DNA from: a virus
DNA length: 35,881 bases
Strand: one strand, 5' to 3'
IMG/VR virus record: IMGVR_UViG_3300027980_000072
Location: 1 to 35,881 of that record
Shown: positions 1 to 35,140 of the stretch, piece after piece
Numbering within the stretch: the stretch's first letter is position 1
Layout of the letters: the number at the start of each line of letters is the position of its first letter
Position numbers and translations under genes: made by a program
The notes under the pieces: generated by a model
What the model was told of the DNA's origin: nothing
Databases searched by the model: none
Seen by the model: only the letters and a program-made list of their open reading frames with translations

Positions 1-689
1 GACCAATTGAGTATGTCTTTTTTATGTTGTTTAATATCCATTTTATCTTCATATCCATGACCTTCTTCATCAAAGGCATATTTCTCATAGAATGACTTAG
101 ATAAGCACTGCGATAGAGTTTGTACAGTAGCAACAGTGATATCTTGTAGATTAACAATGCCACCGCCAATCTGTCCAATTTCAATCCCAAATGCGGCATG
201 CAGTGTATCCATTACCTGCTTAAGTAAATCTAATGTATGAACTATAACTACGGCTCTACAGCCAATAGATTCTATAATACCAGCCATCATTACGGTCTTG
301 CCCGAGCCAGTAGCAGATTGAATTATTCCACTTTTAGCAAATGTTGCCTTAATAATTGTTTCATTTTGATAGTCTCTAAATTGGAAGTTACATCTAGGAT
401 AAGATACTGGAGTACCATTTGAATATTGAAATACATACTCGTATTTATACTCATATCTAGTCAATAAACCAGATACTATATCCAATATGCCAGTTGGGAA
501 TGATTTTGTGTTAATATTAAATAGATGCTTACGACCATCCCATTTACCACATTTGCCACCCTTCTTCATAAAATGTTGTCCTTGAATCTCATATGAACAT
601 ACTTCTTGAATTTTACTTAATGTGGCAGGGTCTATATGGCCTTCAATTATACAAACTGTATTACTTACATTAATCTTGACTAATTGCAT
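1..689 (-). CDS. UvsW-like superfamily 2 DNA helicase (3' end outside window)
   Basis: This is the N-terminal 229 residues of a DEAD/DEAH-type helicase; the gene runs off the left edge. The start ATG at 689 follows GGAAGTGAAAGAGA and lies inside the end of the upstream nuclease gene (20-base overlap), which implies translational coupling. An N-terminal domain with the motif GKWDGRKH is followed by a Q-motif-like RDYQ and then the Walker A motif ATGSGKT, with VVIVHT (motif Ia) next. T4 UvsW and related phage helicases share this order and act in branch migration and recombination-dependent replication. The neighbouring resolvase-like nuclease and single-strand binding protein fit a recombination/replication module. 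Family assignment is good. The exact UvsW role is inferred, because the C-terminal helicase domain is not visible. Confidence 0.82.
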   Translation of the reverse strand, partial: MQLVKINVSNTVCIIEGHIDPATLSKIQEVCSYEIQGQHFMKKGGKCGKWDGRKHLFNINTKSFPTGILDIVSGLLTRYEYKYEYVFQYSNGTPVSYPRCNFQFRDYQNETIIKATFAKSGIIQSATGSGKTVMMAGIIESIGCRAVVIVHTLDLLKQVMDTLHAAFGIEIGQIGGGIVNLQDITVATVQTLSQCLSKSFYEKYAFDEEGHGYEDKMDIKQHKKDILNW

Positions 690-1299
690 TCTCTTTCACT
701 TCCTTCCATCTATCCTTATTGATACTATGGATAGCGGTAGTGAATTGCTTAAGTGTCATAATGACATAAACTTTGCCTTTGAATTTAAAATAGACACAAC
801 ATTTTGGTTGCTTATAAAAATTCTTGATGTTTAGTCTATCAGCCATTTCGATTTCTGAAATATAAAGGTTCTTTATCTTGTTATTCATCTGGATTTCTAA
901 CATCAATGGCAGTGTTGCGTCTGCATGGATCATCTTGAGCATAGTTGTATTATTAATCATAACAAATCCAAATGGTACCTTTGGTCTAGAGAATGCAAAG
1001 AACCATTCTGCTCCATAGATTTCACATTCATCTTCAATTTGTTCTATATCTTCGATTGGTATTTTGTGTCTAGGTTTAAGCTCTGATGGAACAATTCTCT
1101 TTTTTGCCTCACCTAGCCAATTACAGGGACCAGTGCCCTCATTGTCTCTAATATCTCCCCATCCAAACCTTGAATTTGAACCGGAATATGGTACTACATA
1201 CATATTAAGGGACTTAGCTATCTTCTTTTCGAAAGCCTTGCCCCTCTTGCGATTATTGGCATTTTTCCGTGCCAATGGACTCTTTTTCTTCTTTGCCAT
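670..1299 (-). CDS. PD-(D/E)XK nuclease, Holliday-junction-resolvase-like
   Basis: 209 residues. The N-terminal half carries a recognisable PD-(D/E)XK core: E24 in the first helix (KRGKAFEKKIA), D49 in GWGDIRD, and E64-x-K66 in WLGEAKKR. Archaeal Hjc-type resolvases and many phage recombination nucleases have this spacing. The N-terminus is very basic (KKKK, RKNANNRKR), as expected for DNA binding. The C-terminal half (residues 90-209) is unrecognised. The start is set by AGGAGGCAATAAA before the ATG. The gene lies between the single-strand binding protein and the helicase on the same strand, so processing of recombination or replication intermediates is the likely role. Junction specificity is inferred from family resemblance only. 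Confidence 0.7.
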   Translation of the reverse strand: MAKKKKSPLARKNANNRKRGKAFEKKIAKSLNMYVVPYSGSNSRFGWGDIRDNEGTGPCNWLGEAKKRIVPSELKPRHKIPIEDIEQIEDECEIYGAEWFFAFSRPKVPFGFVMINNTTMLKMIHADATLPLMLEIQMNNKIKNLYISEIEMADRLNIKNFYKQPKCCVYFKFKGKVYVIMTLKQFTTAIHSINKDRWKEVKENAISQD

Positions 1300-1346: not shown

Positions 1347-2552
1347 TTATTCAATACCTAAGAATGTTGTTAGATGTTGTAACTGCTCATCTGTCATAGC
1401 ATAGATATTAGTTACACCATTACATTCTCTTGCTAGTAGATCGATTACTGCTTGATATCCTTTGCCTGATACCTCAGGATGTGATTGAATTGACACGTTT
1501 ATCTTTTGAATCACTTGGTTCTTATCAAACGCCGTATCCGGTTGTCCAACCTGTGTTTGTGGTTGAGCCGTAGCCGCTGGTGCTGTCTGCTGTGGCTGTG
1601 TTGGCGGTGTTTGAGTTGCTACAGTACCAGTTGGTTGTGGTGTAATTGGTTGACTAGGAACTGTTGCTGTTGGCGCTTGCTGTACTGGAGTTCCTTGTTG
1701 CGGGTTATTGAAATTTGGTACTCCATCAATCATAACACCACGTAGATTTACCATAATAATTTGTGCACACGCTTTAGTTTCATTTTGACGTTTAGATGTT
1801 GACAGCCAATCTATAAAACTAGGATCTTGTGCATTAATTTGTTCAAGTGTTGCACCTTTATGCTTAGTATTTGGCATTACATGTGCTAATGCTTCTTTTA
1901 GAGATTTTGGATATTCTAGTTCTAGAGGTTTAATGAATTCTTCCCAATTCAATCCAACTTCTAATACTTTAGCTTGCATTGTTTCTACAGTGTCTGGTGC
2001 ATAAACTTCTGCTAAAATAGGCAATTGTGGTTGTAGTGAGTCATAACCTGGATAAACATCAGTAGGTTGTGGCATCGCTGATGATCCAATGTATTCCGTA
2101 CTGAACATATCACCCTTAGTACCTGTCTTGGTTGCTATAAAATTCATTGCTTCAATATTCTGTTTCGCTTTTGCAAGTGGTGACAGTGATTTAAATAGAT
2201 CTGTACCTGATTTTAAAATTCGAACTGATTGTGTAGAATAATCCCAAACTGGCATTGCCATACGTAATCTGCTTGCATGTTTGCCACCTGTTTTACAAAC
2301 TGGACAATTTTCCATGCCTGGGCAGATTATTTCTCTATAAAATGCACCGCCATTAGGGTCATTTTTGCGTGCTTCATTTTGTATTGGATGACTATAGAAC
2401 CCATGAGGCTGTTCTCCTAAATCCGTTCTAAGTAATGGTCGTACAATTTTTGGTTCATTGTACTCAAGTTTGATCTCTTGACCAGAACCCCCACCACCGT
2501 TTGACATCTTACCAGTACCATCAATTACATCCCAAGTATTAATTCCTGACAT
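1347..2552 (-). CDS. Single-stranded DNA-binding protein, gp32-like
   Basis: 401 residues. After a Gly/Ser-rich segment (residues 16-24) there is a region typical of T4 gp32-type proteins: FYREIICPGMENCPVCK supplies zinc ligands C77, C83 and C86, with H92 or an upstream His as the fourth. It is followed by MPVWDYSTQSVRILKSG, which resembles the core OB-fold strand pattern of phage single-strand binding proteins. Residues about 285-345 form a Pro/Gln/Thr/Ala-rich flexible linker, and a small C-terminal domain ends in LTTFLGIE. The ATG follows GAGGAGGAATTTAGA. Its position directly upstream of a nuclease and a helicase supports a role in coating single strands during replication and recombination. 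No homologue search was possible, so the gp32 assignment rests on the zinc motif, composition and context. Confidence 0.6.
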   Translation of the reverse strand: MSGINTWDVIDGTGKMSNGGGGSGQEIKLEYNEPKIVRPLLRTDLGEQPHGFYSHPIQNEARKNDPNGGAFYREIICPGMENCPVCKTGGKHASRLRMAMPVWDYSTQSVRILKSGTDLFKSLSPLAKAKQNIEAMNFIATKTGTKGDMFSTEYIGSSAMPQPTDVYPGYDSLQPQLPILAEVYAPDTVETMQAKVLEVGLNWEEFIKPLELEYPKSLKEALAHVMPNTKHKGATLEQINAQDPSFIDWLSTSKRQNETKACAQIIMVNLRGVMIDGVPNFNNPQQGTPVQQAPTATVPSQPITPQPTGTVATQTPPTQPQQTAPAATAQPQTQVGQPDTAFDKNQVIQKINVSIQSHPEVSGKGYQAVIDLLARECNGVTNIYAMTDEQLQHLTTFLGIE

Positions 2553-4124: not shown

Positions 4125-4136
4125 ATTATTGTCCTC

Positions 4137-5297
4137 CTAAATCATAGCTTTCTCGTCCGTCACTATCATATCTTGTCTTTCTGCTCCAGTACCAAGTCCT
4201 ATCACAGGACAACCTGTAATATTTGTCACTGTTTTCATGAACTGAGCAGTTTTGCCTGTGATTTCTTCTACTCTACCGAGCATCTTCCAATCAATATATT
4301 GGGCGAAGTTGATGAATATACCAGTTGGTCGGTTGAGCTTGGCTACATAATCCAGTCTGTTCCAATTCATTTCAAATACTCTGCGAGTCTTCTTAGTTAC
4401 TGTTGTTTGCTCACCAAACTCCACTTCATCAGGTGCACCACACTCTGCCTTAACTTGATCCCAGCTTATTTCATTGGAACCATCATAATCGCCTGAGTAC
4501 CGTTCATCACCGAGATTGGTCGAGCTACTAATTCTGATTGGATAAGGTCGCATTACCATATAAACTTCAATATTTGGGTATGTTGGTGATATGCCACAAT
4601 CAGCCAATAATTGACCTGCATGGCATTGTCTAGATGTAGTATGTGGGTAATTCAACCCATAGTTAATATCTAGGTCTGTACCTTGACTGCCCTCAATGAT
4701 CACATCTGTGCCAATATCTAATGATGCGTTGATATGGTCCATATAGTCCTGTATTATTATATTTTCTAGTAATGCCCGACCCTGTTCTATAGACAATCCA
4801 TATAGCCCATGCTCTGGATCTTTCCTATATATGTGTAACTCTTCCATCATGTCTAGGAATAATATTGCTTGTCGCATAGCTTTCTCTGCCAATGCCGCAC
4901 CACATCCTTTGAATGTAGATCCTGACTTCAATTTCTTTTTCTCATAATCGCGATGATGGTCAAGTATAACTGCCGCTCTAGGATGTATATGTACCTTACG
5001 GTCACCCAAGATATCTTTATACTTGATAATCTCATCTGCCAGAATTGATGGTGTAATTGCCGCCCCTGGACCAATTACCAATATTGCATTTGGATTGAGA
5101 ATTGATGTAGGTAGATGCTGTACCATTGTTGTCTCACCATCAACAACTGTGGTATGTCCTGCATTTGACATGAAATTATTGATTGCAATGAATGGTCGAT
5201 TATATTGTGATGCGAACCAATCTACTACCTTACCTTTCCCACATGATCCGGCTTGGGAATCCATTATTATACGCACTGTACCTAGTTTAGAAATCAT
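4137..5297 (-). CDS. purZ: PurZ: N6-succino-2-amino-deoxyadenylate synthase (adenylosuccinate synthetase homologue)
   Basis: 386 residues, clearly of the adenylosuccinate synthetase fold but shorter than bacterial PurA (about 430). Family landmarks are present: the phosphate loop DSQAGSCGKGK (residues 13-23), NAGHT with H48, EGSQGTDLDINYG (PurA EGAQGTLLDIDHG), and a C-terminal TGCPVIGLGTG (PurA TGVPIDIISTG). In the loop, PurA has GDEGKG with a catalytic Asp; here that residue is Ser18 (GSCGKG). Asp-to-Ser at this site is the known mark of phage PurZ, which condenses dGMP with aspartate on the way to 2-aminoadenine (Z) deoxynucleotides. The start follows GGAGGTATAAT, embedded in the last codons of the upstream kinase-like gene, so the two are translationally coupled. 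PurA-type activity on IMP is the alternative; the Ser makes it less likely. Confidence 0.8.
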   Translation of the reverse strand: MISKLGTVRIIMDSQAGSCGKGKVVDWFASQYNRPFIAINNFMSNAGHTTVVDGETTMVQHLPTSILNPNAILVIGPGAAITPSILADEIIKYKDILGDRKVHIHPRAAVILDHHRDYEKKKLKSGSTFKGCGAALAEKAMRQAILFLDMMEELHIYRKDPEHGLYGLSIEQGRALLENIIIQDYMDHINASLDIGTDVIIEGSQGTDLDINYGLNYPHTTSRQCHAGQLLADCGISPTYPNIEVYMVMRPYPIRISSSTNLGDERYSGDYDGSNEISWDQVKAECGAPDEVEFGEQTTVTKKTRRVFEMNWNRLDYVAKLNRPTGIFINFAQYIDWKMLGRVEEITGKTAQFMKTVTNITGCPVIGLGTGAERQDMIVTDEKAMI

Positions 5298-5298
5298 A

Positions 5299-6039
5299 TT
5301 ATACCTCCAAGTGTTTATCTAGATAATTTTTAACCGACGATTGTATTGACTCTGCATTAGTGTGATTACCCACCATTATGGTGCACCATTTAATATTGTC
5401 TAAGAAATTCAATTTGATTTCAGCTTGTCTCATGAGTCTCTCATACATATCTTGCTGTGCTATTGATGTCTCTACACCATATTTGACATCTTGATAGTCT
5501 GGTTTATTGCGTTTTAAAGATTTTTCAAAGAAATCTTCTGTTCCTTTTAGATTAATAATAAGGATGTTAACATCTTGTCTTGTAGCGATATCTCCAAGTA
5601 TTTGACAATAGTTCATTAGTCCATCAAATGGATTATAACCCTTATATAGTACTGCATAAACAGCTTCACTAAAATAACTGCGATCCATGATTACATTGAA
5701 ACAACCCATTGCTACTAAATTCTCGCATCGTTCTAGCGCACCTATATGATATTCAAGCCCAACTTTTTCATGTAGTTCTTTCGATATTGGTGCACTGCCA
5801 GTTAGTCTCATCAGTTCACAATATTTATAGTTATCACGCAACCAATTAGTAAGTGTCGTTTTGCCTACACCCTGAGGTCCCTCTACTATTATAATAAATG
5901 GTTTATGATCCATATTCATCATCTCCTTAAATTGTGCACTGCCTCCAATTCTTCGGCAGATCGGGCATTGTAATAAATTCATATTCAGGGCATTAATCCA
6001 CATTGGCCTAGTGTCACAGGTACTACATATTAGATCCAT
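5299..6039 (-). CDS. P-loop deoxynucleoside/deoxynucleotide kinase-like protein with N-terminal zinc-ribbon extension
   Basis: 246 residues. The kinase core starts at M43 (ATG at 5913), which has its own ribosome binding site (AAGGAG, 9 bases away). Walker A is EGPQGVGKTT, and DRSYFSE later resembles the DRS/DRY motif of thymidylate and deoxynucleoside kinases. The first 42 residues form a separate Cys-x2-Cys pair arrangement (C5, C8, C25, C28), probably a zinc ribbon; their outer ATG at 6039 overlaps the end of thyX and has only a weak binding site. Both start points may be used. Lying between thyX and purZ, it could phosphorylate dTMP and/or dZMP on the way to triphosphates. That substrate is inferred from context. 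Confidence 0.72.
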   Translation of the reverse strand: MDLICSTCDTRPMWINALNMNLLQCPICRRIGGSAQFKEMMNMDHKPFIIIVEGPQGVGKTTLTNWLRDNYKYCELMRLTGSAPISKELHEKVGLEYHIGALERCENLVAMGCFNVIMDRSYFSEAVYAVLYKGYNPFDGLMNYCQILGDIATRQDVNILIINLKGTEDFFEKSLKRNKPDYQDVKYGVETSIAQQDMYERLMRQAEIKLNFLDNIKWCTIMVGNHTNAESIQSSVKNYLDKHLEV

Positions 6040-6727
6040 ATTCTGTCACCACCCACATTGGTAATTGATTGACAAGATCTAAGAAGATCTCTGGTAGATA
6101 TTCATTAACTTCCAGTAGAGCAGGGATCATTACCTCTCTAATCTGTGGATGAGCAAATTCACTAACTGCTCGTTGGCTGAATATTTCTCGCCATTCACGC
6201 ATATTGGCTGTAATTACAATACTAGCTTTAGTTGCATTTGGTAATACCCCACGCGCATACTCTGGTGGTATACCATGATCTATCATCTTATTGTAAATGA
6301 GTTCACTCTGTTCCAGTGCTACATTTAATAGGTGTCTATAATGTTGCATGTCTGTCTCTGTTAATTTATTCATCTTAGGTGAGAGTTCAATTGATGTGCA
6401 TGGGTCTATCACATTGATTTCATTTCCAAATCTGTCACCACCATAGTTACAGAATCTAGTTGATTCCTGACTAAATGATGCTAATCTATGGCGTACCATT
6501 TCATGTGTGATACCTCTGTCAACAATAAATTTAATACTCATGCTACAATGTTCAATTACTGAGTGATGACCCCTCTGCATAATCATTTGCACAAATCCAG
6601 ATGCTGAACCATCCTTAACTAAATGTGTTGATTGATAACACTGTCTACCACAATTCTCAATGTGATTGAGTATCTTGTTACGATCTAACTCAGTTAATAT
6701 CTCATGTGAAGCTGTGATTACTTTCAT
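6023..6727 (-). CDS. thyX: Flavin-dependent thymidylate synthase ThyX
   Basis: 234 residues, a normal length for ThyX. The diagnostic motif RHRx7S is intact: R79-H80-R81 then S89 in RHRLASFSQES. It is preceded by RGHHSVIEH, another conserved FAD-binding element. The enzyme makes dTMP from dUMP with FAD and methylene-tetrahydrofolate. The ATG follows AGGAGGGAATTGAT. The 3' end overlaps the start of the kinase-like gene by 17 bases. With purZ and the kinase it forms a small deoxynucleotide operon, which suggests the phage replaces or reinforces host supply of both bases of the A(Z):T pair. Confidence 0.95.
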   Translation of the reverse strand: MKVITASHEILTELDRNKILNHIENCGRQCYQSTHLVKDGSASGFVQMIMQRGHHSVIEHCSMSIKFIVDRGITHEMVRHRLASFSQESTRFCNYGGDRFGNEINVIDPCTSIELSPKMNKLTETDMQHYRHLLNVALEQSELIYNKMIDHGIPPEYARGVLPNATKASIVITANMREWREIFSQRAVSEFAHPQIREVMIPALLEVNEYLPEIFLDLVNQLPMWVVTEYGSNM

Positions 6728-8233: not shown

Positions 8234-9040
8234 TTATTGCTTAATCCAATTCATTTCATCTACTAGTAAATCATGATTTGATTCAAGTTGATAGAAGTAA
8301 TGTGGATTATTGCCTAAATCATTTGGCGTCCCAATTTTTGAGTTAGTTGACAATCCAATCTTTGAATTCTGCATTGCTACCCACATTCCATCAAATGGTT
8401 CCATTCCTAAACTAACTGGTGCATACAGTATAGATACTGGATTTGATCCGAAGCCATCATATTCTTGTGCTCTTTTAAATGATGATCTAATTTCGTCCCA
8501 ATCACCTTCTGCTGTAAATTGTCCAGTATACATTGCTACAAAATCAGGGGCTACTACCTCAAACATCGGAATAAATGCATCATTCTGGTATGGATGCGAT
8601 GTTTCTACCATTAAGGCACCATCAAATAGTTCAGGATAAAACTCTTCATATGATTGAACTATAATACCGCCGATGCTGTGTGCAAAGAAATAATTCTCTT
8701 CAACACCAATCTCTAGTACTAATTTATGTAGTGCTCTTGCTTGTCTCTGACAAGTGAGTGGTTGATCACCCAATGTAGAATCACCAAGTCCACGTCTGTC
8801 ATAGGTTACTACTACAGTATCTGCTGTTACAAACTTGGCTGGTAATTCTCCTAATGCTTCATCAGCATCTCCATAGCCCGTTACCATGAAAATTGCTTTA
8901 GTCGCACTCTCAAGACTTCCATAGACCTTGTAGCTCAGCTCTGCATTGCCATACTCGAATGTTGACTCTGTGGCAAAGCTACCCATTGACATACTGAACA
9001 TTAATACCATAATCATTAATAATGCTAACTTTCTTTTCAT
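8234..9040 (-). CDS. Secreted alpha/beta hydrolase
   Basis: 268 residues from the ATG at 9040, chosen because AAGGAG lies 8 bases upstream and it gives a textbook signal peptide: MKRK, then LALLMIMVLMFSMSMG, with likely cleavage after SFA. The frame continues upstream to 9088, but that start would bury the signal. The mature part is an alpha/beta hydrolase: oxyanion region VTGYGD, DRRGLGDS, nucleophile elbow AHSIGG (S122; the first Gly of GxSxG is Ala-His here), and NHD near the end with H256 as catalytic base. It is probably an esterase or lipase-like enzyme exported by the host Sec pathway. A secreted hydrolase is unusual cargo in a phage replication region. The substrate is unknown. Confidence 0.8.
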   Translation of the reverse strand: MKRKLALLMIMVLMFSMSMGSFATESTFEYGNAELSYKVYGSLESATKAIFMVTGYGDADEALGELPAKFVTADTVVVTYDRRGLGDSTLGDQPLTCQRQARALHKLVLEIGVEENYFFAHSIGGIIVQSYEEFYPELFDGALMVETSHPYQNDAFIPMFEVVAPDFVAMYTGQFTAEGDWDEIRSSFKRAQEYDGFGSNPVSILYAPVSLGMEPFDGMWVAMQNSKIGLSTNSKIGTPNDLGNNPHYFYQLESNHDLLVDEMNWIKQ

Positions 9041-9071
9041 AACTGCATCTCCTTTTGTTTTCAAGTTTAAT

Positions 9072-9350
9072 TTATTTGGGTGTGTCATTGTTATCCTCCT
9101 TCATAGTCCTAAAATGCTTGCGCAATGCCATGCCCATTTGTGCTGGCCCAACTTTAGGTCTATAAATCTTACTAATAAGATCGACAAGTTCAATTGCTGT
9201 AACACCTGTAACAATTGCTACGGGCATAATTGCTTTACATATACTTATTGCCTGATCTTCATCATACATCGATGAATTTATAATCAAATTCACGTCCGCA
9301 TTGCTATATCCTAAATGTTCTGCATATTCATATAATTCTTCTCTAGTCAT
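9072..9350 (-). CDS. Unknown small protein with UBA-like N-terminal helices
   Basis: 92 residues starting MTREELYEYAEHLG. The N-terminal 40 residues look like a small three-helix bundle (helix, GYS turn, helix, SMYDEDQAISICKAI). A hydrophobic helix follows (MPVAIVTGVTAIELVDLI) and then a basic tail with KHFRTMKED. No family is recognised. The ATG follows AGGAGGATAACA. The same GGAGGATAACAATG string recurs at this gene's 3' end, so a short alternative start for the next gene overlaps here. Confidence 0.6.
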   Translation of the reverse strand: MTREELYEYAEHLGYSNADVNLIINSSMYDEDQAISICKAIMPVAIVTGVTAIELVDLISKIYRPKVGPAQMGMALRKHFRTMKEDNNDTPK

Positions 9351-10864: not shown

Positions 10865-12592
10865 CTACACCTCCCTAATTTGTGGTGCATTATATCGCTT
10901 CTTCTTAGCATGCATTACATTAAATTTGAATTCAGGATTCTTATCAAGATATTGTTCTACTTTATTACGTTTTATTGTAACCATATTTTTCATCGCTGTT
11001 ACTTCGCCAGCTAAGAAGAATGCATCAAATAATTTATATGAGTCATATCCATCTGTATGTGGTGATTCTAATATTAATTGCTTACCATCTTCTAGCACAG
11101 TTGGTTTTCCAGCTATCGTATTTTGCTCAATTGCCGCTCTAACTGCATCATTTGCCTGTTTTCTAATATCACCAGCAATTCTTTCGACTGTAGCCGCCAT
11201 ATTCTTTGCACTATAGAGTGTGTCTATATCAGATGCATCTAAGTTTATTGATTGTAGATATAGTGTTGGATTTGCAAGTACGCTATTGTATTTTCTACAT
11301 TTAGCCTTACCTGAGCACCACGGGCAAAGATTATTGAGTGTTGCTGGGAATGTCTGTGCATTTTTAATCATATGCCACATACTGCTTATATAATCTAACA
11401 CATTCTGTATATCCACATCATCATTAACTCTGCAAGGTTGCCATCCAAATCTAAACATTTCATATCCTGTACGCCATTCATCAACCTCAGGATACCAAAT
11501 TCTACATATCGCTTCATATGCTTTCATCTGTAATGAATTATCTAGTTGTGATCTGGTAAATGCCTGTCTGTTTGATTTATAATCCTTAATTAAACCAACG
11601 GTCTTACCATCGATCTTTTCCTTATAAATGGCAATAAGGTCAATTTTGGCCCCAAAGTGTGCATCACCTAATTTTCCACGGAACTCAGGTTCAACTGCTA
11701 TCACTCTGTATGGTCTATTTTGATTAATTGGATTACGTCTAAAGTGGTCTTTTACTAAATTTAGTCCTTCTTCATATTTTTCTAATCCTAGGTCGGTCTC
11801 AGGTGGGCAATATTTAGCATATATCTCTTTATATGTTTTCTCAAGGCACATAATCATGCCAGTCTTCATGAACATATCTTCCATTGCTTCACAGGTATCA
11901 TGACATATCGTACCCAGCCAACTATATTGGTTGTCGTCGCCTTCTGATGGGTCAGTGACTAGCATATAATCATTAAGTAAAGCACTCAAACATTGATTTG
12001 CTTTTTTGATCTTAGATACTGATAGGTAATCTAGATCGAAATTTATCGGTTTCCACATTGCTGGTATTCGCTCAATTGTTCCAGTTGGTGTTATGATCGT
12101 AGCTTCAAGCTCTCCTCGGTTATACCTCAATGAAACCCGAACTGGATCGAAAGGGGCGGCACCGTCTGGTATTGCTAATATCGGCAAAAAGCGGTTCACA
12201 TCGGGTTCGAAGCCATCAACAAATTCTTTTAGCTGTTTTATATGGTCATCTATAAGAATGTAATCTGACATGTCAATTTTTGGTTGCTCACCGCGATTAA
12301 GTAAAAACTTATCGTATTCATCATGTAATAGATCATCATCATGACTTATTGAATCTATCTTACTCCAATTATCTATAGCCTCTTGCCCAGTAGATGTTGA
12401 TATTATCCCAGTCTGTGTATCTTCTGTTGTTATTCTTTTAATTTTAGCTGGTGAGATTTTAAGTCCTGGGTCTGCCTTCTTCTTACATTCTAAGCACATT
12501 TGATTATTGCCAGCATATGCTGATACTTCCATAACTGCGCCACAGGTATTACAGTTAATATTCTTCTTCTTACCCTTTACTGCTGTTCCCAT
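10865..12592 (-). CDS. RecB/AddB/Cas4-type PD-(D/E)XK exonuclease with predicted Fe-S cluster and N-terminal zinc ribbon
   Basis: 575 residues from ATG 12592, directly after AGGAGGAATATA; the frame is open to 12613, but those codons encode the binding site. An N-terminal zinc ribbon (C14, C17, C33, C36) comes first. The nuclease domain has GTICHDTCE (His of motif I), AKIDLIAI (D318), LIKDYKSN (D337, K339) and QMKAYEAI (Gln-Tyr motif). One cysteine before the nuclease (NQCLSALL) and three after it (CPWCSGKAKC) match the four ligands of the 4Fe-4S cluster in Cas4 and AddB nucleases. It probably trims DNA ends during recombination or host DNA breakdown. No helicase domain is fused. A link to CRISPR is not suggested by the context. 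Confidence 0.78.
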   Translation of the reverse strand: MGTAVKGKKKNINCNTCGAVMEVSAYAGNNQMCLECKKKADPGLKISPAKIKRITTEDTQTGIISTSTGQEAIDNWSKIDSISHDDDLLHDEYDKFLLNRGEQPKIDMSDYILIDDHIKQLKEFVDGFEPDVNRFLPILAIPDGAAPFDPVRVSLRYNRGELEATIITPTGTIERIPAMWKPINFDLDYLSVSKIKKANQCLSALLNDYMLVTDPSEGDDNQYSWLGTICHDTCEAMEDMFMKTGMIMCLEKTYKEIYAKYCPPETDLGLEKYEEGLNLVKDHFRRNPINQNRPYRVIAVEPEFRGKLGDAHFGAKIDLIAIYKEKIDGKTVGLIKDYKSNRQAFTRSQLDNSLQMKAYEAICRIWYPEVDEWRTGYEMFRFGWQPCRVNDDVDIQNVLDYISSMWHMIKNAQTFPATLNNLCPWCSGKAKCRKYNSVLANPTLYLQSINLDASDIDTLYSAKNMAATVERIAGDIRKQANDAVRAAIEQNTIAGKPTVLEDGKQLILESPHTDGYDSYKLFDAFFLAGEVTAMKNMVTIKRNKVEQYLDKNPEFKFNVMHAKKKRYNAPQIREV

Positions 12593-12605
12593 TATATTCC
12601 TCCTA

Positions 12606-12878
12606 TTATTCAATAAATTGTATTAAGATGAATTTATCAATTGGTACATCAATTACTTGATTTATGTTATTATAAACTCTTATGATTCCATCAACTCTAT
12701 ATCGATCCGGTGTCTTAATAATCTTTGATATCTCAGATTTAATAAATGGCGATTCAGTAGGATCCTCAATAAACTCAAAATTTAACATAAAGTCTATTAT
12801 TTTATATCCAATCATTTTTGTTATACCTAATTGATCATCTGTGACATTTGCTACTGCCATTGATTTTGTACTATCCAT
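12606..12878 (-). CDS. Unknown small protein, tandem paralogue of the next gene upstream
   Basis: 90 residues. Near the N-terminus it reads MAVANVTDDQLGITK, closely matching FAVALTTDLRLGITK in the adjacent upstream gene at 12888-13133. The rest is strand-rich, with FIKSEISKIIKTPDRYRVDG, and has no catalytic motif. The ATG follows ATAGGAGGTAAAC. The stop lies inside the ribosome binding site of the Fe-S nuclease gene, so translation is probably coupled. Confidence 0.6.
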   Translation of the reverse strand: MDSTKSMAVANVTDDQLGITKMIGYKIIDFMLNFEFIEDPTESPFIKSEISKIIKTPDRYRVDGIIRVYNNINQVIDVPIDKFILIQFIE

Positions 12879-13133: not shown

Positions 13134-14004
13134 CTTTATGTGCCTCCTTTGTCTCCTGTAATTCTTCTTCTATATCTTTAATCTTTTGTTGTAATTCTAG
13201 ATTGAGTGTTTGTTGATCAGTAATTCCTATATCCTCACCTTTTCTTTTAAGATGTAAGTCAAAATCTATTTTACGATACCACTTCGGAAGAACCGCCTCC
13301 GGTACTTCTATATTGTTGTCATCTAATAAATCAAGTAGTATGCCTATACAATTTTCTTCGATCGTTTCCTTTTTATTGGAAATACCACGCATAGCTTCAC
13401 CTGTATATGTGAATGACAGATTAGCATTAGTAGGTTTAATTAAATGTTTGGTCTGTTCTGATAGACTCATAGTAATCAAACAATGAGGACATTGTAATTG
13501 CATTACACATCCATACTTGTTTGTATCCATAATAGTAAGTGGTGTCATTTTCTTCTGACAGTTTGGACATTGAATATACTGCAGATTAGGATTTGCTATG
13601 ATTACAGGATTGATTGCAAAATCCTCAATTGGGATCATCTTTTTCGATAGTCTATTTATATCTACTTTGACTTTAATGCTGGAGGTCTTAGCTTCGCTTG
13701 TTGGTCTGCATTTAGGACATAATGCACCCTGTACCTTACCAAATCTATGTGTTAAGAACTTTTCTCCACACTCTGAGCATTCTACTTCCTTAGATCCACT
13801 AGTTGGATTAACTGGTGCTTTGGATCTTTTCTTCTTCTCAGATGCTTTCTTTTCTGCCTCAGCCAATCTCTCCGGGTCGGCTGGTATATCATGAGATTTA
13901 CAATGATCACATCGTACTTTTAGACCTGACATAAATAGACTGACTGTTACCTCCTTGCCACATGATAAACAGGGTTCTATTTTTGTTTTCCCTTTAGTAC
14001 TCAT
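13117..14004 (-). CDS. Triple zinc-ribbon protein with C-terminal coiled coil
   Basis: 295 residues. Three four-cysteine zinc ribbons are visible: C12-C15-C32-C35, C76-C79-C96-C99, and C146-C149-C172-C175. A basic Lys/Ala-rich linker (EKKASEKKKRSKAP) separates the first two. Residues 265-295 form a charged coiled coil. Such arrays usually bind nucleic acid or RNA polymerase. With the sigma-like gene just upstream in the same transcript, a transcription role is plausible, but that is inference. The ATG follows AGGAGGCGGCAAATA, and the start overlaps the stop of the upstream gene. Confidence 0.7.
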   Translation of the reverse strand: MSTKGKTKIEPCLSCGKEVTVSLFMSGLKVRCDHCKSHDIPADPERLAEAEKKASEKKKRSKAPVNPTSGSKEVECSECGEKFLTHRFGKVQGALCPKCRPTSEAKTSSIKVKVDINRLSKKMIPIEDFAINPVIIANPNLQYIQCPNCQKKMTPLTIMDTNKYGCVMQLQCPHCLITMSLSEQTKHLIKPTNANLSFTYTGEAMRGISNKKETIEENCIGILLDLLDDNNIEVPEAVLPKWYRKIDFDLHLKRKGEDIGITDQQTLNLELQQKIKDIEEELQETKEAHKDATTF

Positions 14005-14212
14005 TATTTGCCGCCTCCTGTATTTTGATATATTTCGTTATAGCCGCATCACAAGACCAATTATATAAATTAATATATTCACCACTTAGACATTTTCTTC
14101 CAGACAATGGACATTCTGAGCATTTAAGTAATTGAGTTATTGAATTATTAAAATTATTCGACTTTATGCTGTATTGTAACATTTTCTTTAGCTCGTCTAC
14201 TGTCTTTTTCAT
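13994..14212 (-). CDS. Small cysteine-containing protein of unknown function
   Basis: 72 residues beginning MKKTVDELKKMLQ. A central CSECPLSGRKC plus a later WSCDAA gives four cysteines that could bind metal. The ATG follows GGAGGCGGCAA, which also encodes the GGGK C-terminus of the upstream sigma-like protein, so start and stop overlap (ATGA). Its own 3' end encodes a near-identical GGAGGCGGCAAATAATG junction for the next gene. Function unknown. Confidence 0.58.
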   Translation of the reverse strand: MKKTVDELKKMLQYSIKSNNFNNSITQLLKCSECPLSGRKCLSGEYINLYNWSCDAAITKYIKIQEAANNEY

Positions 14213-15045
14213 TTGCCGCCTCCTATTATATTATCTATGAAAGTAAATTTCTTGTCTGCTGAAATTGTTTTTGATATTAAAGTATCATCTATTTGTTCAA
14301 TATCATCTAGATATTTTCTAAATCTTTTTCGTAATTTAGTTAAATTGAAATTTACATTTACTGCAGATGTATCCCATTCCTTTGCAATTTGCTTCAAGTA
14401 ATTCTCTACATCTGGGTTAGTCGTATTTATATCTCTGCGGATCATTGCATCAAATAATCTCGTTACGTTTGTTCCCTCTTTAAGTAAATCCTCAAATCCT
14501 ACAATCAATGCCTCAACTGTATCATCAAGAATCATTGTGTTGAGATCATCATATTCATCTACTAAGTTATCAAATGTGATTTCATTCTTGTCTGAAACCA
14601 TATCTGTAGCTACATCTGTACTACCGCATTTCTTACATACATAATTATTATCTACTATGTTTAATCTTGATTTATTTCCACATGTTCTACATGTTTGCAT
14701 TGTACCTTGATTAATATGTTTCTTTACATATCTTTGCGTTTGCCATGTACCAGATTGCAAAATAAACAGGAATGGTTCTCCGACATCTAATTTTGCTTTG
14801 GTAAGTCCAATTGCACAGCCAATCATGAATTCTTGTCTGATATCATCGTCTTCTAATAGACAATTCTTACTAGTAAATCTACTAATTCTACGTCTCATAT
14901 GGTGTTGCTTTATTTCTTCTAATAGAATATCTGTTGCGATCGTGTTATCATTCTGCGCATTAAATATTAATACATTTAATAATTCACTATATTTTGCTTT
15001 ATCTGTTGTTCTGAACTCATCCAATTGTTTTCTCGTATTTGTCAC
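14209..15045 (-). CDS. Divergent sigma-70-like factor with inserted zinc ribbon
   Basis: 278 residues from GTG 15045, set by GGAGGTATAATTAA. Residues about 50-112 resemble sigma region 2: a basic helix, LLEDDDIRQEFMIGCAIGLT (like DLxQEGxIGLxxA of sigma-70), then FLFILQSGTWQTQRYVKKHI, matching the -10-reading helix. A four-cysteine zinc ribbon (C119, C122, C137, C140) follows, which ordinary sigma factors lack. Residues about 212-246 (VENYLKQIAKEWDTSAVNVN) resemble region 4. It probably redirects host RNA polymerase to middle or late promoters, such as those before the plus-strand head genes, whose upstream region lacks a good vegetative promoter. Similarity is weak and read by eye. Confidence 0.58.
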   Translation of the reverse strand: MTNTRKQLDEFRTTDKAKYSELLNVLIFNAQNDNTIATDILLEEIKQHHMRRRISRFTSKNCLLEDDDIRQEFMIGCAIGLTKAKLDVGEPFLFILQSGTWQTQRYVKKHINQGTMQTCRTCGNKSRLNIVDNNYVCKKCGSTDVATDMVSDKNEITFDNLVDEYDDLNTMILDDTVEALIVGFEDLLKEGTNVTRLFDAMIRRDINTTNPDVENYLKQIAKEWDTSAVNVNFNLTKLRKRFRKYLDDIEQIDDTLISKTISADKKFTFIDNIIGGGK

Positions 15046-24731: not shown

Positions 24732-24929
24732 ATGAGAAACTGGCTATTAAAGAAATTGTTAGAATGGAAGAAGAAACATTATGCGTATCAAATATTATCA
24801 ATTGAACTCGAAATAAAATTTAACCATGAAGATGAAGATGATGTATTAATTGATAAATTCAATGATTATCTGAATATCTGTAAAGCAATTGATACTATGA
24901 TTATAGATATGGAGGCAAATAATGGATAA
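24732..24929 (+). CDS. Small protein between the terminase genes
   Basis: 65 residues starting MRNWLLKKLLEWKKKHYAY. The N-terminus is an amphipathic basic helix; the rest is acidic and helical (FNHEDEDDVLIDKFNDYLN). The ATG follows AAAGGAGGCAAAT. Its 3' end overlaps the large terminase start by 8 bases and contains the binding site for it (ATGGAGGCAAATA). Function unknown; it may be coupled to packaging by position only. Confidence 0.68.
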   Translation: MRNWLLKKLLEWKKKHYAYQILSIELEIKFNHEDEDDVLIDKFNDYLNICKAIDTMIIDMEANNG

Positions 24930-26910
24930 TAATGAAATTGTGGAAGTTGAATCGGAAGATACAATAGAAGCAACCGAAACAGAATCTGAAGTGCAAGAAG
25001 ACCAAAATTATAATGAAATACTTGAAGCAGAATTGAAGGATAATGGAGAAATGATCAAATGGGAAGATATGTCCATGGAAGACATATTCCTAGAGGGACT
25101 CAGTTCATTGGGTGAAGCAGATTATAAAGAAGTTATTTCTGAATTTGACTCAATAGCTTGGATAGAAACTAACCGTACAATTAAGGGTAGACCATTTAGT
25201 TTTGATAAGAGAAATTATCTACTTGATATCTATAGAGATGAATCTAGACACTTGATAATTTATAAGGGTCGACAAGTTGAAATGACTGAGTTTGCAATCA
25301 ATTGGTGTTTATGGAAATTATGGAAACACCCATATACTGCCGCACTTCATACGTTCCCACGTGACAAACAGGTGTTGCGCGTTAGTAAACAAAGGATACA
25401 GCCTGCAATTAAAGATAGTAAAAAATTGACTGCATGGAAGTCACCTGAAAGTGATCAAAGAATGATCAAATTTGAGAAAATGGCTAATCCAGATACAGGA
25501 CTTATTCCTTACAACTTCTTGGTTATGGGAGGTACATGGGAGGGTGCTGGTGGTGAAGCTGGGGATGCCGCTCGTGGACTTACTATAGATTTCACAGTAT
25601 ATGATGAACGTCAGGATCATCCCAATGATGTTGAGGCAGTAGTTGGTGAAGCTATGTCCCATAGTGAATTCAAAAAGTCATTAACATTAGGAACCCCTAA
25701 ATTGCCAGGCACCCAATTTGATGAGGAATGGGAATCTAGTACGAAACAATTCTGGATGAATACTTGTGAACATTGTGGCATGGTACAGACCATGACAATG
25801 GAAAATATACTTAAATGTGATGAACATAAAATAGAATTAATTATTGCAGGTGAGGATCAAGAATACTATTATGGATGTCGTAGATGTTTCAAACCTATTA
25901 ATAGAGTAGATGGATTTTGGAAAGAAACTAATCCTCAACGTAGAGCACCATATAGTGGATATCATATTAGTCAACTTATAGTATCATGGATCAGCGCTCA
26001 AGAGATAATGGATAAATACATATCTGTTAAATATACTAAGCGTAAATTCTTTAATGAGGTTCTTGGGCTTGCATATGGTGGAGATGATATACCTATTACG
26101 CAAGAAGCCATGAATAAACTATACAAGAATGATTATGGATTGTATGATCATGAGAATGAAAAACTCTATGTCGGTATTGACTGGGGTAAAACTTCATGGA
26201 TTTGGGTACAGAAAAAGACTGAAAATGGTATACAGCCAATAATGATTGATTACTGTGATGATAAGAGAACTAATAAACATGCATCTATCTTTGCACAGAA
26301 ATTGAAACCATATGCTCAATACATCAAGTGCGTTGTAAACGATGCTGGACCGGACATTACGAGACATCAAACGTTGGGCGAAGAGCTGGTTAAAATTGGG
26401 ATTCACGCACCTGTATACGCCTGTTACTACGCCCAGCCACCTGCTAAGGTTGATACGAAATTCAACGACAAGGAAGGTATTGTATCTGCAGGTAGATCTG
26501 AGTATATTGAAATGGTATCGAAAGAAATTGAAACGGAACAATTAATACTTCCAGGTAAATTGAAAGATACTCCTATTATGACATTGGTTGATACTCACTT
26601 TACTTGCCTAAGTTCAGAACGTATTAAAAGAGACAATGGACAAGAATTTATTATTTATCATAACTCCGGAGATGATCATTTACTACATGCTAAGATATAT
26701 TGTAATGTAGCTATGATGTCAGATGTGGATTTACAGCATGTCGGTAGTAGTGCTTCTAATTTCCAGAATAATAACAAAGCTAATATTCAAAGTACATCAA
26801 ATAGATCGAAAGATTTATATGGATTATTGAAAACAACTATAAAACCTAAGAAACAGGCCGCAAATTCAGTACAATTTGGCAGGTCTAATAGAAGGAGGGG
26901 TCTACGTTAA
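24922..26910 (+). CDS. terL: Terminase large subunit, GpA-like, with zinc ribbon
   Basis: 662 residues, in the range of lambda GpA-type subunits. After an acidic N-terminus comes the ATPase: Walker A variant YKGRQVEMTE (residues 114-123), Walker B TIDFTVYDE (221-229). A zinc ribbon follows (C282, C285, C319, C322), as in GpA-type enzymes. The nuclease domain shows VGIDWGKTSW (D420), VVNDAGPD (D474) and DDHLLHAK (D584/D585) as the three metal sites. It packages DNA into proheads and cuts genome ends. The ATG follows GGAGGCAAATA. It stops in a one-base overlap with the portal gene (TAATG). Confidence 0.92.
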   Translation: MDNNEIVEVESEDTIEATETESEVQEDQNYNEILEAELKDNGEMIKWEDMSMEDIFLEGLSSLGEADYKEVISEFDSIAWIETNRTIKGRPFSFDKRNYLLDIYRDESRHLIIYKGRQVEMTEFAINWCLWKLWKHPYTAALHTFPRDKQVLRVSKQRIQPAIKDSKKLTAWKSPESDQRMIKFEKMANPDTGLIPYNFLVMGGTWEGAGGEAGDAARGLTIDFTVYDERQDHPNDVEAVVGEAMSHSEFKKSLTLGTPKLPGTQFDEEWESSTKQFWMNTCEHCGMVQTMTMENILKCDEHKIELIIAGEDQEYYYGCRRCFKPINRVDGFWKETNPQRRAPYSGYHISQLIVSWISAQEIMDKYISVKYTKRKFFNEVLGLAYGGDDIPITQEAMNKLYKNDYGLYDHENEKLYVGIDWGKTSWIWVQKKTENGIQPIMIDYCDDKRTNKHASIFAQKLKPYAQYIKCVVNDAGPDITRHQTLGEELVKIGIHAPVYACYYAQPPAKVDTKFNDKEGIVSAGRSEYIEMVSKEIETEQLILPGKLKDTPIMTLVDTHFTCLSSERIKRDNGQEFIIYHNSGDDHLLHAKIYCNVAMMSDVDLQHVGSSASNFQNNNKANIQSTSNRSKDLYGLLKTTIKPKKQAANSVQFGRSNRRRGLR

Positions 26911-34078: not shown

Positions 34079-35140
34079 ATGCCAAATAAAATTATTGGTT
34101 CGAGTGAGATAGTCTCCGGCGTCATTCAGCCAAGTCCTGGTATTAAAAGAGTTTATATTATTGGTGCCAAAGGTACGGCTGGTTCTATGACAGATCTACA
34201 GTCAGAGCTTACAATCAGCAAGGATGATGCCGAAGCAAAAATCGGTACTGGTACAACGATACCTGATCTCGTGGAAGCTGTTATAAATAATGGTGGTCGT
34301 GAGATATATCTAACCACTATCGACACAGTTGAGGTAGAATTAGATGATAAGTACAATGCGGCACTAGACTTAATCTCAAATGATGATGCTAGACAATCAA
34401 TTATTATACTTGATATTGCGGCTGAGGCTACAGTTACGGTAGCTATTAAAGCATGGCTGTCATTAATGGAGACAGCAAATAGACATCGTTATTATATTCC
34501 AGGAATTGTGGCAGGAGACGATACAATCCCAGAGCACAAGACTGCGGCATTAGCATTTGCTGATAAACGTATTATTTATCCAGGTACTACCACTCTTGAG
34601 GCTGGTGGCGGTGATACATCAGGTACAATTCAAGCCGCTCGATTTGCGGGTATATTCGCATCAGAAACTGCAGATCCAGCATTGCCACTTAATAGTGTAG
34701 TAGTTCAAGGTCCAATTGGTCTCAAGGATGTAATTACTACAGTTGTAGCAGATGATTTGGTTGATAATCAGGTCACAGCGATGATAGCCAATGGTGGTAA
34801 CATTGAAATATACCGTACGGTTACAACATCTACAGATGCTAATTACGAGGCATTCACTACTGTATTGACTGAGGATTATACACTCGATAGAGTATTAACT
34901 AGACTTAAGACTGATTTCAAACGAAATAAGAAATCTGATAGAATACTTAATGCTATTAGAGATTCTGTTATTGATGAACTATTGACTGTTGAAAGCTTAG
35001 AGATAATTGAAGACTTTGATCAAGATTCAGTTGTAGTTAGGGCAGATCCTCAGGATAGCTTCGGCGCACTTGTTGATTATGCAATCAATATTGTTACACC
35101 ACTCTATACGCTTACTGTTAAGCAGAATCTTACAATTTAA
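34079..35140 (+). CDS. Contractile tail sheath protein
   Basis: 353 residues, compact for a sheath. Characteristic regions: N-terminal VYIIGAKGTAGSMTDLQSEL, LVEAVINNGGREIYLTTI, RHRYYIPGIVAGDD, and the C-terminal conserved core VLTEDYTLDRVLTRLKTDFK, with DSVIDELLTVESLEI. The C-terminal LYTLTVKQNLTI fits the strand that links sheath subunits. It contracts at infection and identifies the phage as a myovirus. The ATG follows AAAGGAGGTAAACA. Confidence 0.9.
   Translation: MPNKIIGSSEIVSGVIQPSPGIKRVYIIGAKGTAGSMTDLQSELTISKDDAEAKIGTGTTIPDLVEAVINNGGREIYLTTIDTVEVELDDKYNAALDLISNDDARQSIIILDIAAEATVTVAIKAWLSLMETANRHRYYIPGIVAGDDTIPEHKTAALAFADKRIIYPGTTTLEAGGGDTSGTIQAARFAGIFASETADPALPLNSVVVQGPIGLKDVITTVVADDLVDNQVTAMIANGGNIEIYRTVTTSTDANYEAFTTVLTEDYTLDRVLTRLKTDFKRNKKSDRILNAIRDSVIDELLTVESLEIIEDFDQDSVVVRADPQDSFGALVDYAINIVTPLYTLTVKQNLTI

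What the first reader, a model, noticed from the sequence alone, without database searches (positions are those of the whole stretch)
4137..6727. PurZ-ThyX-kinase operon: this contractile-tailed phage may have a 2-aminoadenine (Z) genome
Seen: an adenylosuccinate synthetase homologue with GSCGKG in place of GDEGKG, so the catalytic Asp of PurA is Ser18, as in phage PurZ enzymes. Directly upstream and translationally coupled are a deoxynucleotide kinase-like protein and ThyX. Established: PurZ plus host PurB converts dGMP to dZMP; companion genes in Z phages are MazZ, DatZ and DpoZ. None of these is in the window, but the left side of the genome is missing. Inference: the operon supplies both members of the Z:T pair. 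The best-studied Z phages are siphoviruses, so a myovirus with this operon would be worth a look.
Basis: partly seen in the sequence, partly recalled or inferred. Interest (0 to 1): 0.88.

Follow-up and report, generated by a model that had tools for sequence, protein, structure and literature searches.

The report
PurZ phage with Pol III-type replicase
A contractile-tailed phage, probably of Gram-positive bacteria, carries the gene that makes the alternative DNA letter Z (2-aminoadenine) but none of the helper genes looked for from other Z-phages, and a cultured relative's DNA was reported to resist enzymes that normally cut at adenine-containing sites.

Summary
In detail: window 4137-5297 (-) encodes a PurZ-type enzyme (GSCGKG, Ser18 for PurA's Asp) beside a P-loop kinase and ThyX. 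A second contig overlaps both window ends and closes a 67,253-bp map, so the 'missing left side' could be read. It holds no DatZ, DUF550/DUF5664 MazZ or PolA-type DpoZ. The only polymerase found is a bacterial-type Pol III alpha (family C), split at the PHP domain, with a dUTPase, an adenylate-kinase-like protein and NrdD/G.

PurZ falls in the phage PurZ clade (100/100), in a branch (98/97) with Bacillus phage vB_BpsS-140, four viral contigs and two clostridial chromosomal genes. The purZ replication module is shared across myo- and siphoviruses; the purZ-kinase-thyX 'operon' is not.

Published digests report BpsS-140 DNA insensitive to DraI, PstI and BamHI despite 21, 4 and 3 sites. In four sequenced phages of that study all five 'insensitive' calls match zero sites, but two 'cut' calls do too. 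EcoRI was reported to cut.

A Z-containing genome is likely (0.7): a third Z-phage lineage with another kind of polymerase. dZ is unproven in this group. BpsS-140 is deposited (DSM 29700), so LC-MS can decide.

The parts
4137..5297 (-). purZ: ATP-type succino-amino-deoxyadenylate synthetase (dGMP + Asp -> dSMP, inferred), Ser18, ATP-pocket motif NFAQ (330-333)
   Evidence: PHROG 1211 1.7e-63; tree; residues; model close to 5k7x PurA and 6tnh/7odx PurZ
5299..6039 (-). P-loop nucleotide kinase-like protein next to purZ; no clear relative in the related records compared
   Evidence: PHROG 761 1.3e-15; no hit at 1e-4 in 8 records, best 33 residues in G005 at 0.002
6023..6727 (-). thyX, flavin-dependent thymidylate synthase, motif RHRLASFSQESTR
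   Evidence: PF02511 8.1e-42; motif
1347..2552 (-). ssDNA-binding-like protein, conserved near purZ in the clade
   Evidence: PHROG 14578 2.7e-07; hits in G002-G005 and BpsS-140
670..1299 (-). RusA-like Holliday junction resolvase, part of the shared module
   Evidence: PHROG 244 2.6e-05; hits in G002-G005 and BpsS-140
3..689 (-). UvsW-like helicase, part only (whole gene in G001, L007:6992-8452)
10865..12613 (-). PD-(D/E)XK exonuclease, shared module gene
   Evidence: PF12705 4.3e-08; hits in G002-G005 and BpsS-140
14209..15045 (-). shared module protein; its BpsS-140 counterpart (26% identity) is annotated sigma-70 family factor
24922..26910 (+). terminase large subunit; relatives mainly in Staphylococcus, Bacillus, Enterococcus and Listeria phages (host hint)
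   Evidence: PHROG 675 2.3e-102
34079..35140 (+). tail sheath (contractile tail)
   Evidence: PHROG 165 1.7e-18

Best explanation
The gene is a true phage purZ of a separate, Bacillota-associated branch. The enzyme condenses dGMP with aspartate using ATP or dATP to make dSMP; host PurB and nucleotide kinases (perhaps helped by the phage's adenylate-kinase-like protein) turn it into dZTP; the phage's own Pol III alpha (family C) then builds a genome in which Z replaces adenine wholly or largely. Shown here: gene, clade, active-site residues, closed genome map, gene content, absence of the companions searched for. Inferred: the reactions, the use of dZTP by this polymerase, and how dATP is kept out. 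Candidates for the last are the clade's dUTPase-fold protein acting like DutZ, PurZ's own dATP use, and a HAD-like phosphatase in the myoviruses (my reading of its sequence). That adenine is replaced at all in this group rests on reported restriction data for BpsS-140.
For: Tree: ATP-type PurZ clade 100/100, window branch 98/97, PurZ0 and PurA outside (same placement). PHROG 1211 1.7e-63. Pocket residues S18, N45-A46-G47-H48-T49, S127-T128, R142, Q205, T298-T301 and the ATP-pocket N330-F331-x-Q333 match those described for S-2L PurZ in PMC8342488. purZ sits in a replication module shared by myoviruses G002-G004, by G005 and by the siphovirus BpsS-140. BpsS-140 virion DNA is reported insensitive to DraI, PstI and BamHI though its sequence has 21, 4 and 3 sites; in four other phages of the study, read whole, 5 of 5 'insensitive' calls fit zero sites. 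BpsS-36, same host species and no PurZ, has 10 DraI sites and was cut by DraI. E. coli given the S-2L Z-cluster replaced on average 12.1% of plasmid and 3.9% of chromosomal adenine by Z; E. coli's main replicase is family C (established knowledge).
Against: [quoted passage not shown] The digest report contradicts sequence twice: BpsS-36 'cut' by EcoRI and by PstI with no site for either in its 50,485 bases, so its reliability is limited in both directions. No DatZ, DUF550/DUF5664 or DpoZ. The window PurZ scores 183 bits against NCBI's PurZ model, below its cut-off of 300. S-2L's V241, Y203 and C204 are Ile, His and Thr here. The phage encodes a Dam-family N6-adenine methyltransferase. The branch includes two chromosomal clostridial genes, so its members need not all serve a phage genome. 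BpsS-140 shares only 39.6% PurZ identity with the window, so its DNA speaks for the window phage only by analogy.
Confidence: 0.7

Rival explanations
1. PurZ makes dZTP but substitution is partial: without dATP removal and without a Z-selective polymerase, Z and A mix in the genome, enough to block some restriction sites. (This overlaps the best explanation, which says wholly or largely.)
For: No DatZ or DpoZ; EcoRI reported to cut BpsS-140 while DraI, with three A per strand in its site, did not; E. coli with the Z-cluster reached only 12.1% and 3.9%.
Against: PstI and BamHI, each with one A per strand, were also reported as failing, which low substitution would not give; S-2L has all its adenines replaced while its polymerase takes both A and Z (PMC8065100 abstract).
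Confidence: 0.3
2. The DNA is ordinary ATGC; the PurZ-like enzyme only manipulates nucleotide pools or has another product, as may be so for its cellular Ser-type relatives.
For: Ser-type homologues occur in many bacterial and archaeal genomes (78 of 79 cellular hits), with an ordinary PurA also found in 7 of 12 such genomes searched; the nearest cellular ones sit in chromosomal surroundings.
Against: BpsS-140 DNA is reported to resist three enzymes at existing sites. purZ is fixed inside the replication module of phages with unrelated structural genes.
Confidence: 0.15
3. BpsS-140's restriction resistance comes from another modification (for example a modified thymine or adenine methylation), or from faulty digests, and says nothing about PurZ.
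For: All three uncut sites contain T as well as A; host methylation is possible; the authors themselves name unusual bases or methylation as general explanations for PstI and BamHI resistance; two of 16 checked calls in the report are wrong.
Against: DraI's site has no C or G, so a cytosine or guanine modification would not block it. No Dam-family methyltransferase (PF02086) in BpsS-140. A phage of the same host species was cut by DraI. Both wrong calls are cuts without a site, not failures with sites. No thymine-hypermodification gene is annotated in BpsS-140, but I ran no search for one.
Confidence: 0.12
4. The protein is an ordinary adenylosuccinate synthetase (PurA) boosting AMP supply.
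For: Same fold; the best structural match is Pyrococcus PurA 5k7x, ahead of phage PurZ 6tnh.
Against: The essential Asp is Ser; placement outside PurA; PurA equivalog TIGR00184 138.7 bits against a cut-off of 395.55.
Confidence: 0.04

Closest known systems
Bacillus phage vB_BpsS-140 (MH884512) PurZ and replication module
   Same: 39.6% PurZ identity, same branch; split Pol III alpha (PHP ORF plus polymerase ORF), dUTPase, adenylate-kinase-like protein, primase, UvsW helicase, exonuclease, resolvase; a thyX is annotated but gave no blastp hit or ThyX motif in my scans
   Different: Siphovirus with unrelated structural genes; annotated RecA; no NrdD hit; its PHP and polymerase ORFs adjoin, while the window phage has two small ORFs between them
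PurZ of phiVC8, SH-Ab 15497, cyanophage S-2L
   Same: ATP-type PurZ clade, Ser catalytic position, N-F-x-N/Q ATP pocket, fold
   Different: Of six such phages surveyed, DatZ in 6, PolA-type polymerase in 5 (S-2L uses a PrimPol), DUF550 in 4 (one below cut-off), DUF5664 in 2, family C polymerase in 0
PurZ0 phages (Arthrobacter, Gordonia, Streptomyces)
   Same: Ser at the catalytic position; a dUTPase-fold gene (3 of 3 surveyed)
   Different: Separate clade (100/100); PolA-type polymerase 3 of 3, family C 0 of 3
Jumbo viral contigs with PurZ (G007-G014, 84-408 kb)
   Same: ATP-type PurZ and family C polymerase, 8 of 8
   Different: Own PurZ clade (100/100); family C matches spread over two or more ORFs in an arrangement not worked out; a weak PolA-like ORF of 381-450 aa in 8 of 8 (7 over cut-off); no PHROG 165 sheath

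Membership tests
PurZ (ATP-type) | Ser replacing catalytic Asp13 of E. coli PurA | tested here: met
   GSCGKG, Ser18; necessary but not sufficient, as 78 of 79 cellular hits have Ser too
PurZ (ATP-type) | Groups with characterised phage PurZ | tested here: met
   36-row clade 100/100 (4 of the 36 from prokaryote MAG contigs), window branch 98/97; 61-row clade SH-aLRT 94
PurZ (ATP-type) | N-F-x-N/Q adenine pocket | tested here: met
   N330-F331-A-Q333 as in S-2L N305-F306-x-Q308
PurZ (ATP-type) | Score over NCBIfam NF038379 cut-off (300 bits) | tested here: not met
   183.4 bits, though it is the best NCBIfam hit
PurZ (ATP-type) | dGMP + Asp -> dSMP activity | not testable with these tools
   needs enzyme assay
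PurZ0 | Groups with PurZ0 | tested here: not met
   PurZ0 is a separate 100/100 clade
PurA | Catalytic Asp and grouping with PurA | tested here: not met
Z-cluster (datZ-mazZ-purZ) | DatZ, YfbR-like HD (PF12917) | tested here: not met
   0 in G000 and G001; 6 of 29 records, all known PurZ phages
Z-cluster (datZ-mazZ-purZ) | MazZ types DUF550 (PF04447) and DUF5664 (PF18909) | tested here: not met
   0 in G000 and G001
Z-cluster (datZ-mazZ-purZ) | MazZ-2 (phiVC8-like) | not tested
   no model of its own used; no MazG hit among the 40 ORFs of G000/G001 scanned against Pfam, which are not all ORFs
DpoZ Z-phage | PolA-type polymerase (PF00476) | tested here: not met
   0 in G000-G005 and BpsS-140; 20 of 29 records overall
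Z-genome phage | dZ in virion DNA | not testable with these tools
   indirect only: reported DraI/PstI/BamHI insensitivity of relative BpsS-140
DutZ (dATP/dGTP diphosphatase of PurZ0 phages) | dUTPase fold with DutZ specificity | tested here: inconclusive
   dUTPase in 5 of 7 window-group records, the same 5 that hold the polymerase domain; catalytic motifs kept, alignment does not separate DutZ from dUTPase

The most novel reading that the evidence does not exclude
A third, independently assembled way to a Z genome: PurZ paired with a split bacterial-type Pol III alpha (family C) as the Z-DNA replicase, with no DatZ, DUF550/DUF5664 or DpoZ, in myo- and siphoviruses of Bacillota. If the jumbo-contig clade with PurZ and family C polymerase works alike, Z genomes may reach 400 kb.
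Probability: 0.5. Interest if true: 0.86.

Novelty: new variant of a known kind. Interest (0 to 1): 0.74.

Why it matters
In the papers I looked at, Z-DNA is copied by PolA-type polymerases or, in S-2L, by a PrimPol. [quoted passage not shown] It would also explain a published DraI insensitivity, and a deposited phage exists (DSM 29700) on which the question can be settled.

Tried and rejected
Tried without result: a viral scan with BpsS-140 PurZ alone (24 stretches, none a relative). Kinase relatives at relaxed thresholds: best 33 residues in G005 at E 0.002. DutZ versus dUTPase by alignment: undecided, and two of the four jumbo dUTPase rows were cut to 16 and 30 residues by my frame choice, so they carry no weight. 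Enzyme lists for Z-DNA: the two primary papers are not held, so what cuts Z-DNA rests on a sentence in PMC8342488. The paper search for BpsS-140 was ill-posed: it found nothing although PMC6483233 holds vB_BpsS-140, because the term must start a word.

Considered and rejected: ordinary PurA (clade, Ser18); PurZ0; the whole thyX-kinase-purZ set as a conserved Z operon; reading Ser18 alone as proof of a Z genome; reading polymerase-PurZ co-occurrence as functional proof. One search listed 80 of 301 viral loci with a related family C polymerase; of the 41 on records over 40 kb, 4 records carry PF00709: two of the window group and two with Asp-type PurA, which fits shared ancestry as well as function.

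Rows dropped: one search extracted 180 sequences (22 reference, 79 viral, 79 cellular); one search used 101 and one search used 60, picked by me for spread and run time. The viral and cellular sets are the best 80 and 79 of 506 and 208 relatives found (one of the 80 viral loci, L002, is this phage itself and was left out). The viral set has Ser partly by construction, because one search pattern asked for it; the cellular set does not. For the digest check I took 4 of the other sequenced phages of that study; the rest were not checked.
Full report
1. What is in the window. The 386-aa ORF 4137-5297 (-) carries GSCGKG, with Ser18 where E. coli PurA has Asp13; one nt separates it from the 246-aa kinase-like ORF 5299-6039 (-), which thyX 6023-6727 (-) overlaps by 17 nt. 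PHROG 1211 (PurZ) matches at 1.7e-63, PF00709 at 4.6e-40, ThyX at 8.1e-42; the kinase matches PHROG 761 at 1.3e-15 and no Pfam family over its cut-off. Terminase, portal, major head protein and a tail sheath (1.7e-18) are on the + strand: a myovirus.

2. The missing left side. The window is itself a whole virus record of 35,881 bases. Contig G001 (IMGVR_UViG_3300005589_000047, 47,498 bp) overlaps both its ends: 4,736 bp at the left with one mismatch (window position 4136, one base outside purZ) and 11,390 bp at the right with none, giving a circular map of 67,253 bp. I scanned 40 ORFs of the two records against Pfam and 50 against PHROGs, not every ORF.

3. What the rest of the genome holds. 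DNA ligase, RNase H, Pol III alpha (family C) as a 990-aa polymerase ORF plus a separate 333-aa PHP ORF, a dUTPase-fold protein, anaerobic ribonucleotide reductase NrdD/NrdG, an adenylate-kinase-like protein, a primase-helicase, a Dam-family methyltransferase and a UvsW helicase. The five full polymerase ORFs of the group keep a PD[IV]D[FIV]D motif.

4. Survey of 29 records. Window group, 7 records: G000 and G001 (this phage), G002, G003, G004, G005 and BpsS-140. Family C polymerase (PF07733): 5 of 7; the window fragment G000 lacks that region and G004 holds only the end of the gene. dUTPase: the same 5 of 7. PolA, DatZ, DUF550, DUF5664: 0 of 7. Six known PurZ phages (SH-Ab 15497, S-2L, phiVC8, Bm1, ZP6, PSA28): DatZ 6, PolA 5, DUF550 4 (one below cut-off), DUF5664 2, dUTPase 1, family C 0. 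Three phages of the PurZ0 clade (HunterDalle, Archimedes, Hiyaa): dUTPase 3, PolA 3, DatZ 0, family C 0. Tail sheath PHROG 165: G000-G004 only, 5 of 29. In G003 and G005 the last 40 bases recur near the start, so they too are probably complete.

5. Phylogeny. Quick tree, 101 of 180 sequences: the window in a 9-row set (SH-aLRT 97) inside a 61-row PurZ clade (94). Careful tree, 60 of 180: ATP-type PurZ clade of 36 rows 100/100, of which 4 come from prokaryote MAG contigs (L108, L109, L115, L154); window branch of 8 rows 98/97 (window, BpsS-140, the G002-G005 proteins, two clostridial genes); S-2L, phiVC8 and SH-Ab 15497 in the sister group of 28 rows (99/97); PurZ0 in its own 100/100 clade; E. 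coli PurA and a PurA from a Listeria phage record as outgroup. Pocket residues described for S-2L PurZ (section part read) are largely kept, with V241 replaced by Ile256, Y203 by His219 and C204 by Thr220. The AlphaFold model (pLDDT 88.4, pTM 0.89) matches PurA 5k7x first (2.6e-30) and PurZ 6tnh (1.9e-28) and 7odx (8.7e-28) next, so fold alone does not tell PurA from PurZ.

6. A conserved module, not a conserved operon. Exonuclease, purZ, SSB-like, resolvase, UvsW helicase, primase-helicase, polymerase and PHP have hits in G002, G003, G005 and BpsS-140 (G004, a fragment, holds part); dUTPase and adenylate-kinase-like in G002, G003, G005 and BpsS-140; NrdD in G002, G003 and G005. Structural genes have hits only in G002-G004 (one G001 gene of that region, 13957-14772, also in BpsS-140's cwlK endolysin). 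The kinase next to the window's purZ has no hit there; thyX is present in G002, G003 and G005 but away from purZ. The PurZ-less BpsS-36 has thyX and a dNMP kinase side by side.

7. Physical evidence in print. PMC6483233 (section 25 read in full; other passages) digested DNA of Lake Elmenteita phages: EcoRI cut all, DraI all but vB_BpsS-140; PstI failed on all but three (not BpsS-140), BamHI on all but BpsM-61. In the passages I saw the authors name site loss, unusual bases or methylation in general and do not mention PurZ; PMC6375668 does not use the word adenylosuccinate in its main text. BpsS-140 has 21 DraI, 4 PstI, 3 BamHI and 24 EcoRI sites; DraI is not depleted (Markov expectation 21.1). 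I checked the report against the whole sequences of four other phages (BpsS-36, BboS-125, EalM-132, BpsM-61; none has a PurZ/PurA hit): 14 of 16 calls fit; the two misfits are BpsS-36 'cut' by EcoRI and by PstI with no site for either; all 5 'insensitive' calls fit zero sites (first counted on partial sequences). Thus among these five BpsS-140 is the only one with sites present and no cutting, for three enzymes, all with A in their sites. The EcoRI result speaks against full substitution, but EcoRI is also one of the two misfits. PMC6375668 (passages) had already listed BpsS-140's polymerase as Pol III alpha in separate ORFs, though the GenBank record leaves that stretch without those genes.

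8. Can a family C polymerase do it? E. coli with the S-2L Z-cluster replaced on average 12.1% of plasmid and 3.9% of chromosomal adenine by Z (PMC8342488, section read), so host replication, whose main enzyme is family C, accepts dZTP. S-2L's own PrimPol takes both A and Z (PMC8065100 abstract and passages). Selection against A may therefore lie in the pools.

9. Prior knowledge. PMC12884076 (introduction, first of three parts of the results, three further sections and the discussion read) describes PurZ and PurZ0 lineages, DutZ, DmtZ and two DpoZ groups in a tree with 147 phage sequences; myovir-, Bacillota, Firmicutes, DNA polymerase III and jumbo do not occur in its main text. PMC8342488 found ten phages with datZ and purZ, all sipho- or podoviruses. 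A search for 2-aminoadenine with bacteriophage and polymerase III gave no paper; 2-aminoadenine with myovirus gave four, of which I saw passages of two, neither on a myovirus Z genome; purZ with phage gave 47, 40 listed, of which I looked into a few; a two-of-three search on purZ, DNA polymerase III and Bacillus phage listed 8 of 41, none with purZ among the 8. Within these searches of an open-access library I found no report of a Z-phage with a family C replicase; papers outside it were not searched.

10. Host. Terminase relatives are mostly in Staphylococcus, Bacillus, Enterococcus and Listeria phages (567 of 614 records); the nearest PurZ in the phage collection is from a Bacillus phage and the nearest cellular ones are clostridial: Bacillota is the likely host phylum, by inference.

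11. Verdict. PurZ enzyme: very likely (about 0.85). Z wholly or largely in this group's genomes: about 0.7, resting on a relative. The composition of the window phage itself is untested.

Noticed in passing
L108:5448-6524, L109:9977-11071, L110:10001-11323: PurZ-like genes on clostridial MAG contigs in chromosomal surroundings (L109: ABC transporter and coaBC-like neighbours; L110: rpsU- and rplS-like neighbours; all named by eye). The genome of L109 also has a normal PurA. In L108 a NUDIX-like gene ends 14 nt upstream. Cellular PurZ of unknown role.
   Followed up: partly
L114, L116, L134, L142, L147, L166, L170, L174, L176, L180 and others: Ser-type PurA-like domain in long ORFs: 16 of 79 cellular hits exceed 480 aa and 14 of these show a GxxxxGK[ST] P-loop in the first 60 residues, in bacteria and archaea. 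Function unknown; parallels the window's kinase-purZ gene pair.
   Followed up: partly
G007-G014 (L033-L044), contigs of 84-408 kb: Large viral contigs carry ATP-type PurZ plus family C polymerase matches lying in two or more ORFs in 8 of 8 records.
   Followed up: partly
L007:5353-6420 (-): Dam-family N6-adenine methyltransferase in the window phage, not found in its relatives (3 of 29 records): odd for a genome thought to lack adenine.
   Followed up: partly
L006:6388-6894 (-): HAD-like phosphatase by eye (DFDG..., VDDR), named 'phosphoheptose isomerase' by PHROG 1238, kept in the four myoviruses; could act on dAMP.
   Followed up: no
L026:480-1750 (NC_067270, Mycobacterium phage I3): RefSeq names this '2-aminooxy adenylosuccinate synthetase', but it has GDAGKG, the PurA-like Asp, so the PurZ-type name looks wrong there.
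   Followed up: no
L004:31831-35434 (MH884512 48892-52495): The GenBank record of BpsS-140 shows no gene over most of a 3.6-kb stretch that encodes PHP and polymerase parts of Pol III alpha.
   Followed up: yes
window 8234-9088 (-): Alpha/beta hydrolase (PF12146 2.1e-06) with no hit in the related records compared.
   Followed up: no
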